NCBI GenBank assembly: GCA_001791045.1
Contig: MGDT01000003.1
Coordinates: 40,817-74,117, forward strand
Length of the DNA stretch: 33,301 nucleotides
Direction: 5' to 3'
DNA from: Candidatus Uhrbacteria bacterium RIFCSPHIGHO2_01_FULL_63_20
GTDB lineage: Bacteria; Patescibacteriota; Patescibacteriia; UBA9934; GWF2-40-263
Shown here: positions 10,996-20,817 of the stretch, in pieces
How positions within the stretch are numbered: position 1 is the first letter of the stretch
Layout: each line of letters starts with the position of its first letter
The notes under the pieces: model-generated
Told to the model about the DNA's origin: nothing
Seen by the model: the letters and a program-made list of their open reading frames with translations, nothing else
Database searches by the model: none
Made by a program: the position numbers and the translations under genes

Positions 10996-11034
10996 GACCT
11001 CACCCCTGACCCCTCTCCTTAGCAAGGAGAGGGG
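10996..11034. repeat. Left terminal inverted repeat flanking the DUF559 gene (contains hairpin)
   Basis: GACCTCACCCCTGACCCCTCTCCTTAGCAAGGAGAGGGG, inverted match to 11471-11505. Confidence 0.75.
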
Positions 11035-11395
11035 GGCTTGTCTTGATAAAGGCGTGGATGCGTTCGAGGATGGCGTCGATGTTTTCCATAACGTCCGCGT
11101 TCGTAAAGCGGAGAACGCGATTATTGAGGGATTCCAGGTAAGCGGTACGTTCGGCGTCGTATGCCACCCCTTCCGGCGTGAAGTGGCTCTCGCCGTCGAT
11201 CTCGATGACCAAACGCCGCTTCGCGCAATAAAAATCGACGATGTACGGCCCGATGCCGACCTGCCGACGGAACTTGAGGCCGCCTAATGCCCTGTTGCGG
11301 ATCCGCTTCCATATCTTCCGTTCAGGCAACGTCGAATCCCTCCGTAATTCCCGACGACGCTCCGACTTGTCATTCCTGTTGATGATGGAGGCCAT
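11000..11395 (-). CDS. DUF559 / very-short-patch-repair-like endonuclease
   Basis: LPERKIWKRIRNRALGGLKFRRQVGIGPYIVDFYCAKRRLVIEIDGESH. Confidence 0.88.
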   Translation of the reverse strand: MASIINRNDKSERRRELRRDSTLPERKIWKRIRNRALGGLKFRRQVGIGPYIVDFYCAKRRLVIEIDGESHFTPEGVAYDAERTAYLESLNNRVLRFTNADVMENIDAILERIHAFIKTSPPLLAKERGQG

Positions 11396-11440: not shown

Positions 11441-11480
11441 ATTCGCTATCCCTCTCCTTAATTCGCTATCCCTCTCCTTA
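11441..11480. repeat. Perfect 20-bp tandem duplication
   Basis: ATTCGCTATCCCTCTCCTTA x2. Confidence 0.9.
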
Positions 11481-11505
11481 CTAAGGAGAGGGTATGGGTG
11501 AGGTC
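11471..11505. repeat. Right terminal inverted repeat flanking the DUF559 gene (contains hairpin)
   Basis: Reverse complement GACCTCACCCATACCCTCTCCTTAGTAAGGAGAGG matches 10996-11034. Confidence 0.75.
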
Positions 11506-11583
11506 TGGCACCGTCGGGTATGGGTGAGGTCTGGCACCGTCGGGTATGGGTGAGGTCTGGCACCGTCGGGCATGGGTGAGGTC
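11491..11583. repeat. 26-bp tandem repeat, about 3.6 copies
   Basis: GGTATGGGTGAGGTCTGGCACCGTCG at 11491, 11517, 11543; partial diverged copy at 11569. Confidence 0.92.
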
Positions 11584-11587
11584 GAGC

Positions 11588-11644
11588 ATGAAAATCAAAA
11601 CGGGCCCCGCGTGTTCACACCAGATGGCGTGATACGCGGAGCCC
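11588..11644 (-). terminator. Long terminator hairpin downstream of gene B
   Basis: Minus: GGGCTCCGCGT...ACGCGGGGCCCGTTTTGATTTTC. Confidence 0.6.
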
Positions 11645-11673: not shown

Positions 11674-12267
11674 TCACTTGCGGACGACGAGGAAGACGTA
11701 GAAGCTGCACAAAACGTCAACGTAGACGGTCCAGTACAGGCCGAGGCGTCGGTCGCAGCTGCCCTCGTAGAGGGGTGCGATGCTGCGGCCGTCAACCACC
11801 TGCGCGATAGAACCGAGAGTTTCGATGAGCTGCTTTCGTTGCTCGTCAGGATTCGTCTTGACAAACTCGAGAATCTCTTCGTAGAAAGCTGGGCGCATGC
11901 CTTGGCGATCCATATCGGCGAGCACGGCGTCGCTGGACATCGTTCGAACAACGAACATGCAATCGAATCTCATTTCGCGCTTCTCACGGGGAACGTCCAT
12001 GCATCGGTCTATTGGCGTGAACTCCGCCTTGGCGCAGCCATCGTTCACCCAGTCAAAATCGTACTTGAGATCCGCGAACTTCGGCTGGACGTAGTCTCGA
12101 CTGATGGTGGCGATCGCGACCTTCGTCACGACCGCCTCGACCAAGCGCTTCATGAGCGAGTTGTCGTTGCGAAGCTTGTTGGCAAGTTCGGCCGTCATGC
12201 CGGCCTCCGCCAGCTTCGTCATGAAGTTGTTGAGCTTTCCCGATTCCATCTTGAACAGGTTTGCCAT
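11674..12267 (-). CDS. Hypothetical protein 'B'
   Basis: Start MANLFKMESGKLNNFMTKLAEAGMTAELANKL preceded by AGAAAGG; own promoter and terminator. Confidence 0.75.
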   Translation of the reverse strand: MANLFKMESGKLNNFMTKLAEAGMTAELANKLRNDNSLMKRLVEAVVTKVAIATISRDYVQPKFADLKYDFDWVNDGCAKAEFTPIDRCMDVPREKREMRFDCMFVVRTMSSDAVLADMDRQGMRPAFYEEILEFVKTNPDEQRKQLIETLGSIAQVVDGRSIAPLYEGSCDRRLGLYWTVYVDVLCSFYVFLVVRK

Positions 12268-12279
12268 GTGGCTTCCCTG

Positions 12280-12424
12280 CCTTTCTTGATGCCGCCGGTA
12301 TATTCGTAAAGCGCGGAGTGCGCCGTACGACTTTCCTGAGTTGAGAGCAGCCATTCGACCCAACCTTTCGCGAAAGGTGGGAGCAAAATACCGTTCTCAA
12401 CATTTCTATTTTCAATGTTCGACG
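12280..12424 (-). ncRNA. Candidate cis-regulatory leader RNA, copy B
   Basis: GTTGAGAACGG (12401-12391) pairs with CTGCTCTCAAC (12350-12340); internal hairpin; conserved GGCGGCATCAAGAAAGG; shared with 20604-20738. Confidence 0.65.
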
Positions 12425-12430
12425 CAGGGA

Positions 12431-12459
12431 ACTATACCACTTTTAAGGGGTTTTGTCAA
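12431..12459 (-). promoter_or_regulatory. Strong sigma70 promoter of gene B
   Basis: TTGACA - 17 nt - TATAGT. Confidence 0.8.
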
Positions 12460-19771: not shown

Positions 19772-20593
19772 TCAGAGCACATCACTCCCGAGAGAGGGCA
19801 CTAAGAACTCCCGATAGTCGAAGCCGTACCTGCCCGCGTCCAAGAACACCCCGCCCGCGTTCGTATTGCGGTACACGCAGGGCACGCCGTACCACGAACG
19901 GCCGTCGTGCTCGGGGACGTTGAGCTCGTAGCCGGCGAGGAAGAACCCGGGGTTCTCGTCGTAGTCAATCGCCTTCACATACTCCGGGTGGAGCCAGGCG
20001 AAGGCGAGACCCTCGTCCGCGAGCGACAGCTTGCCGCGGACGGCTTCGATGCTCTTCCGCTTGCGGTTCGCGCCCAGGTCGATGGTCACCCATTCGACCA
20101 CGCTCTTGTGGGTGTCATTGCCGGCGAGCAGGCGCAGGCGATCCTTGTCGGATCGCAGGTGCTCCCAGCGGTAGAAGGCGCTCTCGCCGAATTCCTTCTC
20201 GATGCGCTCCGCGTGCGCCTCGAAGGTGTTCGCGACCCCCTCCTGCCCCTTGCCGAGGCGGATGCGCAAGGAGAGGAACGCGAGGCGGCCTTTCGGCTGC
20301 TCGGGGGCGGTCTTCGCGAGACGATCGAACACCTCCTCGCCCAGACCCCAGCCCTCTTCCTTGTTGGCGAGGCGCAACCGCGTGAGCAGCTCCGACGCCG
20401 TGAGGGCGAAGGGGTTGTGGTCGTCGAGGTCGGTGCGGAAGGTGGCGTGCTTGCGCATGGCCTTCAGCATGTCGTCGAGCACGTCCGGATGCTCGAGCAG
20501 CTTCAGCACCTCCTCGGCGGTGAGGTCGCTGCCGTTGAGCAGACGATCGAACTGGTCCCAATCACCTTTCCGAAGCGTTGCAAGGCGAGCCAT
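19772..20593 (-). CDS. Hypothetical protein 'A'
   Basis: Start MARLATLRKGDWDQFDRLLNGSDLTAEEVLKLLEHP; own promoter, leader and terminator. Confidence 0.8.
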   Translation of the reverse strand: MARLATLRKGDWDQFDRLLNGSDLTAEEVLKLLEHPDVLDDMLKAMRKHATFRTDLDDHNPFALTASELLTRLRLANKEEGWGLGEEVFDRLAKTAPEQPKGRLAFLSLRIRLGKGQEGVANTFEAHAERIEKEFGESAFYRWEHLRSDKDRLRLLAGNDTHKSVVEWVTIDLGANRKRKSIEAVRGKLSLADEGLAFAWLHPEYVKAIDYDENPGFFLAGYELNVPEHDGRSWYGVPCVYRNTNAGGVFLDAGRYGFDYREFLVPSLGSDVL

Positions 20594-20691
20594 GTGGCGA
20601 GCCCCTTTCTTGACGCCGCTGGCGAGCATGATCCACGCACCACGCGCAGACGAGGCGAGCCTGTGTTGAAAGCGGCCATCTGACGCGTTAG

Positions 20692-20710
20692 GCCTTCGAC
20701 AAGCTCAGGC
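20692..20710. repeat. Short hairpin repeat GCCTGAGCTTGTCGAAGGC
   Basis: Direct reading; forms the cap of the leader's internal hairpin. Confidence 0.6.
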
Positions 20711-20737
20711 AATAACGCTGCAAAATACCGCTTTCAA

Positions 20738-20757
20738 CCTGCCTGCCGGCAGGCAGG
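20738..20757. repeat. Perfect 20-bp palindrome CCTGCCTGCCGGCAGGCAGG
   Basis: Self-complementary by inspection. Confidence 0.9.
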
Positions 20758-20788
20758 TGACGACTTTGGATTGAATGAGCGAGGTCAA

Positions 20789-20817
20789 AAAATATCACGA
20801 AAACGACTTTTTGTCAA
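20789..20817 (-). promoter_or_regulatory. Promoter of gene A
   Basis: TTGACA - 17 nt - TATTTT. Confidence 0.7.

What the first reader, a model, noticed from the sequence alone, without database searches (positions are those of the whole stretch)
20594..20790. Conserved structured 5' leader RNA shared by two distant hypothetical genes (candidate new cis-regulatory RNA)
On the minus strand, gene A has GTTGAAAGCGGTATTTTGCA-[hairpin]-GTCAGATGGCCGCTTTCAAC. Gene B, ~8 kb away, has GTTGAGAACGGTATTTTGCT-[hairpin]-GTCGAATGGCTGCTCTCAAC. The arms pair in both: A has a perfect 11-bp stem; B has one compensatory A-U to G-C change, one G-C to G-U wobble and one A.C mismatch. The internal-loop words GGTATTTTGC and GTCRRATGGC are nearly invariant. 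The enclosed hairpin is unrelated in sequence (GCGTTA..TAACGC in A; CCTTT-CGCG-AAAGG in B). Downstream both carry GCGGCRTCAAGAAAGG and GCCACATGGC at the start codon. A conserved structure with a variable cap looks like a riboswitch or other cis-regulatory RNA, or a cassette-associated element. I do not recognise it as a named family, but I could not search.
Basis: partly seen in the sequence, partly recalled or inferred. Interest (0 to 1): 0.85.

Follow-up and report, generated by a model that had tools for sequence, protein, structure and literature searches.

The report
RNA switch on hypermutated Patescibacteria genes
In tiny Patescibacteria, genes that a retroelement deliberately hypermutates share a previously undescribed folded RNA at the front of their messages, which looks like a translation switch and also marks such genes that earlier surveys could not see.

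Summary
The two hairpin leaders (A, window 20615-20738; B, 12291-12401, minus strand) belong to an RNA family absent from Rfam. A covariance model built from A and B, then refined, found 38 well-aligned members in one class of Patescibacteria and more in other classes. Nearly all sit about 28 nt behind a sigma70-type promoter; the element ends 21.5 +/- 2.5 nt before the start codon.

First, the downstream word GCGGC is a third strand. It pairs with the 3' arm of the hairpin core (helix P3) and competes with the 5' arm. Where the 5' arm stops matching, the third strand still matches (32 of 35 cells). This suggests a hairpin/pseudoknot switch just upstream of the Shine-Dalgarno sequence.

Second, the downstream genes are targets of diversity-generating retroelements (DGRs). 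In 11 of 22 loci checked a template repeat lies 315-569 nt behind the gene, and all 110 template/variable mismatches fall on template adenines. A and B are homologues of such targets without a local cassette.

Most likely this is a cis-regulatory RNA controlling translation of DGR targets. Switching, its direction and the trigger are inferred, not shown.

The parts
20789..20817 (-). Leader A promoter: -35 TTGACA (20812-20817), 17-nt spacer, -10 TATTTT (20789-20794)
   Evidence: Sequence; 36 of 39 leaders score >=9 of 12 consensus positions (shuffled upstream sequences 20%), -10 a median 28 nt before P1
20665..20738 (-). Leader A hairpin P1: 5' arm GTTGAAAGCGG 20728-20738, upper stem with UUUUG, cap 20682-20720 carrying a dispersed palindrome, 3' arm CCGCTTTCAAC 20665-20675
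   Evidence: covariation in 38 sequences
20621..20661 (-). Leader A hairpin P2 (three-part stem with conserved 3-bp base, sequence variable)
   Evidence: 35 of 38 sequences z < -1, mean z -2.66 (A itself -0.2); basal pairs covary
20615..20676 (-). Leader A helix P3: GCCGCT (20671-20676, inside the P1 3' arm) with AGCGGC (20615-20620, just upstream of the Shine-Dalgarno)
   Evidence: 89.9% of cells paired, slid controls 24-60%; competes with P1 core
20602..20610 (-). Leader A Shine-Dalgarno AGAAAGGGG
   Evidence: Sequence
19772..20593 (-). Gene A: 273-aa homologue of DGR variable proteins, no template repeat found in its own genome
   Evidence: (64% identity to the validated DGR target L006 over 214 aa, E 2e-89)
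12431..12459 (-). Leader B promoter: -35 TTGACA (12454-12459), 17-nt spacer, -10 TATAGT (12431-12436)
12340..12401 (-). Leader B hairpin P1: arms 12391-12401 and 12340-12350
12297..12336 (-). Leader B hairpin P2
   Evidence: z -3.3
12291..12351 (-). Leader B helix P3: GCTGCT (12346-12351) with GGCGGC (12291-12296)
12275..12287 (-). Leader B Shine-Dalgarno region AAGAAAGGCAGGG
   Evidence: Sequence
11674..12267 (-). Gene B: 197-aa protein; residues 1-63 homologous to a validated DGR target (L049); C-terminus of another type that resembles that of L023
   Evidence: E 7.5e-12

Best explanation
It is the 5' untranslated leader of diversity-generating-retroelement (DGR) target genes in Patescibacteria, and it works as a cis-acting translation switch. 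SHOWN by comparison: P1, P2 and P3 are conserved by compensatory changes; P1's core and P3 use the same 3' arm (GCCGC), so they cannot coexist; P3 ends 21.5 +/- 2.5 nt before the start codon; nearly all of the genes are DGR targets or their homologues; a promoter lies just upstream, so the RNA should start about 20 nt before P1. INFERRED: lower P1 (GUUGAA/UUCAAC) and upper P1 (UUUUG/CAAAA) can stay formed while the core arm is handed from the 5' strand to the downstream strand. That exchange converts a long hairpin into an H-type pseudoknot abutting the ribosome-binding site. The hairpin state (the predicted default) leaves the Shine-Dalgarno region open and permits translation; the pseudoknot state hinders 30S loading. 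A trans factor or condition, unknown, sets the balance, so that the target genes of a cell, including those far from the retroelement, are controlled together. The ON/OFF assignment is a guess at roughly 60:40.
For: P1: 30 cells with double-sided compensatory change against 12.2 +/- 2.6 shuffled; 90.3% paired, slid controls 36-47%. P3: 16 against 6.0 +/- 1.7; 89.9% paired, slid controls 24-60%; pair 91-155 is C-G in 22 and U-A in 12 of 38, with U-A in several families beside C-G relatives. In 35 cells where the 5' arm is not Watson-Crick to the 3' arm, the downstream strand is Watson-Crick to the 3' arm in 32 and copies the 5' arm in 2, so it pairs rather than mimics (five sequences with a bulged or shifted P3 left out). 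Members found by later searches, including other classes, keep P3: L132, L134, L139, L140, L144, L146, L147, L154, L160 in 5 of 5 pairs, L136 and L119 in 4 of 5 (read by eye). G.U outnumbers A.C in upper P1 28:0, cap 27:4, P3 14:2, P1 36:21, as expected for RNA on the sense strand. Isolated P3 duplex is at least as strong as the P1 core duplex in 26 of 38. Promoter. Spacing. DGR: RT in 9 of 10 genomes, about 2 kb downstream of the leader on the same strand in nine intact loci; 110 of 110 TR/VR mismatches at TR adenines over 11 cassettes; bAvd E 6e-19 and DivGenRetAVD E 2e-21 in the one cassette scanned.
Against: The minimum-free-energy fold has P1 in all 38 and P3 in none; a nested P3 without P1 costs about 10 kcal/mol. 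P3 therefore needs the pseudoknot or an outside trigger; pseudoknot energies were not computed. P3 covers sequence 5' of the Shine-Dalgarno, not the Shine-Dalgarno itself, so repression is not self-evident. No ligand, protein partner or expression data. Some DGR loci of the same genomes have no recognisable leader (10 of 11 extra RT loci, some cut by contig ends). One P1-like match (L057/L135) lacks P3 and precedes an unrelated gene.
Confidence: 0.62

Rival explanations
1. A static structured leader: P3 always forms as a pseudoknot (or P1 always as a hairpin), serving as a 5' mRNA stabiliser or ribosome docking platform without switching.
For: P1 starts close to the predicted mRNA 5' end, where hairpins protect transcripts; P1 is the predicted fold in every sequence; spacing of P3 to the start codon is constant.
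Against: Both exclusive pairings of the same arm are conserved; a static structure needs only one of them.
Confidence: 0.2
2. A small-molecule riboswitch with P1 upper stem and P2 as aptamer and P3 as expression platform.
For: Competing helix next to the ribosome-binding site is the usual platform logic; conserved UUUUG/CAAAA upper stem.
Against: No conserved unpaired aptamer core: P2 and the cap vary freely in sequence; the genes are hypervariable proteins, not metabolic genes.
Confidence: 0.1
3. An element of the retroelement itself, for example recognised by RT/Avd or needed for target recognition during retrohoming.
For: Tight link to DGR targets.
Against: Present on targets far from any cassette and in G001, where no RVT_1 gene was found (100% complete); it sits 5' of the gene, at the opposite end from the variable repeat.
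Confidence: 0.06
4. A DNA-level recombination site (attC-like or other cassette element) that shuffles N-terminal modules between targets.
For: The two halves of the leader have different histories: P1 follows host lineage, P2-to-SD follows the N-terminal protein module; arms end in GTT/AAC.
Against: G.U exceeds A.C, so selection acts on sense RNA; GTTRRR...YYYAAC is the reverse order of attC boxes; promoter and Shine-Dalgarno in fixed register.
Confidence: 0.04
5. Chance or paralogy: two recently duplicated upstream regions.
For: Genes A and B share a similar N-terminal layout.
Against: A and B proteins do not align; leaders recur in many genera with covariation.
Confidence: 0.01

Closest known systems
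Translational leaders acting through a pseudoknot at the ribosome-binding site (E. coli rpsO/S15 leader, preQ1-II riboswitch; from general knowledge)
   Same: Hairpin and pseudoknot compete for one arm near the Shine-Dalgarno; fixed distance to the start codon.
   Different: No sequence or Rfam relationship; genes are DGR targets; ligand or protein unknown; Shine-Dalgarno itself not paired.
Patescibacteria-specific DGR clade 2 and its targets (Roux et al. 2021, PMC8144416)
   Same: The cassettes found here (target, TR, Avd, RT) have a DGR layout in that phylum, and their targets lack recognisable domains, as reported.
   Different: No mention of a conserved leader RNA was found in that paper's main text (searched for 'upstream', 'promoter', 'UTR', 'regulat'). 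It states that targets remote from the RT were not detectable; the leader marks such genes. Membership of the RT in clade 2 was not tested.
Rfam release 15 families
   Same: None reaches threshold.
   Different: Only tRNAs found in window and test loci.
Integron attC sites
   Same: Folded imperfect hairpin with GTT/AAC ends.
   Different: Box order reversed, no integron looked for or seen, RNA-type covariation.

Membership tests
Structured cis-regulatory 5' leader RNA (general kind) | Conserved secondary structure supported by compensatory changes | tested here: met
Structured cis-regulatory 5' leader RNA (general kind) | Lies between promoter and start codon in fixed order | tested here: met
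   (promoter by consensus only)
Structured cis-regulatory 5' leader RNA (general kind) | Changes expression of the gene in cis | not testable with these tools
   Needs reporter or RNA-seq
Riboswitch | Conserved ligand-binding core and measured ligand binding | not testable with these tools
   No conserved loop core seen in A5; binding cannot be measured here
Riboswitch | Match to a known class in Rfam | tested here: not met
DGR (for the genes downstream) | Template repeat near a variable repeat with adenine-specific mismatches | tested here: met
   11 loci, 110 of 110 mismatches at TR adenine; not found for genes A and B themselves
DGR (for the genes downstream) | Reverse transcriptase with the DGR variant of motif 4 and an Avd gene | tested here: met
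   RVT_1; LGNLTSQ read in L085; bAvd and DivGenRetAVD in the L085 cassette; other cassettes not scanned for Avd
DGR variable protein | C-type lectin fold | tested here: inconclusive
   Confident model of gene A (pLDDT 88.5) but no significant PDB match (best E 2.0)
attC site | RYYYAAC...GTTRRRY box order | tested here: not met
   Arms read GTTGAAA...TTTCAAC

The most novel reading that the evidence does not exclude
Patescibacteria run their hypermutated proteins as a regulon controlled by one shared RNA switch: a three-strand hairpin/pseudoknot exchange in the leader of many targets, local or remote, so that a common signal decides when diversified proteins are made. The leader is assembled from a lineage-specific 5' half and a module-specific 3' half.
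Probability: 0.4. Interest if true: 0.9.

Novelty: new variant of a known kind. Interest (0 to 1): 0.8.

Why it matters
DGRs are common in Patescibacteria, but nothing was found in the held library about how their targets are expressed, and Roux et al. 2021 note that targets far from the retroelement escape detection. A conserved leader gives a handle on both: it is a sequence tag that finds remote and orphan targets (gene A looks like one), and it implies coordinated control. A structure in which three strands co-evolve, two of them competing for the third, is also directly testable at the bench. The opposite inheritance of the two leader halves points to module exchange among hypermutated genes.

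Tried and rejected
(1) boxA antitermination: the predicted mRNA 5' ends (GUUCAUU, GUUCUUU) resemble boxA, but the rrn leaders of the same genomes carry GTTCACAA-type sequences, so the match is weak; dropped. (2) attC/integron: box order wrong. (3) Riboswitch of a known class: no Rfam match. (4) A pairing of the mRNA 5' end with the P1 5' arm, as in a four-strand attenuator: good in L023, absent in L006 and L021; checked by eye only, not claimed. (5) Template repeat for gene A: no match in the own genome; B and L023: none within the loci held. (6) Known structure for the A protein: no sequence match and no fold match in the PDB. (7) Exact-pattern search of 97 genomes found only the window's own two copies; the covariance model was needed. 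(8) Viral contigs: no exact match to the P1 pattern. (9) Several non-Patescibacteria pattern hits (L148, L152, L153, L157, L161) score weakly and lack the layout; considered chance. The hits labelled Lentisphaerae and Ignavibacteriae (L146, L160) are full leaders with target-like genes; misbinned contigs are suspected, not tested.

Full report
WHAT WAS CLAIMED AND WHETHER IT IS THERE. The two hairpins are present at the given places and pair as described. There is no Rfam family at gathering score in the window apart from tRNAs, and nothing at relaxed threshold for the two leaders except a meaningless mir-9416 hit on the other strand. Each alone folds only slightly better than shuffled sequence (z -1.9 and -1.4), so everything rests on comparison.

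THE FAMILY. A covariance model from A and B (R1) found two further copies in the same genome and six in five relatives. A second model (R2) found matches in 17 of 73 genomes of the order (E <= 1e-3) and in 21 of 389 of the class at E <= 1e-6, with only eight candidates scored per genome. A third (R3) reached other classes of the phylum: four further genomes, of which G535, G634 and G717 show the layout and G440 is doubtful. A pattern scan of GTDB species genomes names the carriers mostly as Candidatus Uhrbacteria and other Patescibacteria; viral contigs gave none. These counts are lower bounds.

ANATOMY. Reading 5' to 3': a sigma70-type promoter with its -10 a median 28 nt before P1 (36 of 39 score >= 9 of 12, shuffles 20%). 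Then hairpin P1 with lower stem GUUGAAA/UUUCAAC, core GCGG/CCGC, upper stem UUUUG/CAAAA and a free cap. Then hairpin P2, a three-part stem with a 3-bp base whose pairs covary and which folds below shuffles by more than one sd in 35 of 38. Immediately after P2 comes the word RGCGGC, then the Shine-Dalgarno, then the start codon 21.5 +/- 2.5 nt after that word.

THE THIRD STRAND. RGCGGC is complementary to GCCGCY in the 3' arm of P1, the stretch that the P1 core also uses. On the 38-sequence MAFFT alignment A5, both pairings are supported. P1 has 30 double-change cells against 12.2 +/- 2.6 shuffled. P3 has 16 against 6.0 +/- 1.7, with 89.9% of cells paired against 24-60% for slid versions. The shuffles do not preserve relatedness and the slid controls do; both agree. 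The downstream word could mimic the 5' arm rather than pair. This was tested: where the 5' arm departs from Watson-Crick with the 3' arm (35 cells), the downstream strand is the complement of the 3' arm in 32 and copies the 5' arm in 2. Members found later keep it (read by eye). G.U pairs far outnumber A.C in upper P1, cap and P3, so the selected molecule is the sense RNA.

GENES. The proteins behind the leaders looked like several unrelated hypothetical families but share hypervariable C-termini. A test for DGRs was positive. RVT_1 genes occur in 9 of 10 leader genomes, about 2 kb downstream of a leader and on its strand in nine intact loci, plus one locus with a broken RT. Eleven of 22 leader loci have a template repeat 315-569 nt behind the target, with every one of 110 mismatches at a template adenine; reversed-sequence controls reach about 50% identity or less. 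An Avd homologue lies in the cassette of this genome, L085, and its RT has the motif LGNLTSQ. BLAST links 26 of the other leader proteins to validated targets, A at 64% identity over 214 aa (E 2e-89) and B over its first 63 residues. Genes A and B themselves have no local cassette; A has no template in the assembled genome. They are orphan or remote targets by homology, not by direct proof. A structure model of A is confident (pLDDT 88.5) but matches nothing solved, so a C-type lectin fold is not established.

TWO HISTORIES IN ONE LEADER. Similarity of the P1 half follows host family (Spearman 0.25, Mantel p 0.002) and not the N-terminal protein module (0.00). Similarity of the P2-to-SD half follows the N-terminal module (0.37, p 0.002) and not host family (-0.01). 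The leader is thus a mosaic, and P3 bridges the joint. G.U pairs in L058 and L147 look like recent joins not yet compensated (inference).

MECHANISM. The P1 core and P3 are mutually exclusive. Lower and upper P1 do not conflict with P3. Keeping them gives a classical H-type pseudoknot in which the strand GCCGCUUUCAAC pairs downstream with its first half and upstream with its second. As isolated duplexes P3 is at least as strong as the P1 core in 26 of 38, so the exchange is energetically plausible, while a nested P3 without P1 is about 10 kcal/mol worse. I propose a translation switch: hairpin open, pseudoknot closed, trigger unknown. What is shown: the RNA family, its two exclusive pairings, its position and its genes. 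What is inferred: that the exchange happens, that it changes translation, and in which direction.

LIMITS. No expression or probing data. Covariation was counted without an explicit tree. The library of papers gave no description of this leader, but subscription papers and preprints are not in it. Ten of eleven additional RT loci in the same genomes gave no leader match, some of them cut by contig ends, so the leader is not universal among DGR loci.

Noticed in passing
window 20693-20709 (-): A dispersed palindrome (CCTGAGCTTGTCGAAGG) sits in the cap of hairpin A; related copies lie elsewhere in the genome (L024, L025) and a relative of it caps leader L021. A second palindrome CCTGCCTGCCGGCAGGCAGG lies directly upstream of P1.
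   Followed up: partly
predicted 5' end of the leader mRNAs (e.g. window 12405-12425, L006, L023): A conserved word GUUCAUU/GUUCUUU/GAACAUU starts about 8-10 nt after the -10 in most leaders; its role is unexplained and it only weakly resembles the rrn leader words.
   Followed up: partly
window 11480-11610 (-): Tandem copies of a 26-bp unit (CCTCACCCATACCCGACGGTGCCAGA) right behind gene B, followed by an ORF (11000-11395) resembling very-short-patch/DUF559-type endonucleases (by eye).
   Followed up: no
L057/L135 (G101:C1:1993-2130): A good P1 hairpin with promoter but no P3 strand, ahead of an unrelated 334-aa gene: either a decayed leader or a different use of P1.
   Followed up: no
L026 and L028: Leaders intact but the downstream target genes are interrupted soon after the start (39 and 33 codons), suggesting decayed targets or assembly errors.
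   Followed up: no
L146 and L160: Full leaders with target-like genes on contigs binned as Lentisphaerae and Ignavibacteriae; probably misbinned Patescibacteria DNA, otherwise horizontal transfer.
   Followed up: no
window 19772-20593: Target gene A stands alone between housekeeping genes (a recO-like gene and an aminoacyl-tRNA synthetase gene, by eye), not in an obvious mobile region.
   Followed up: no
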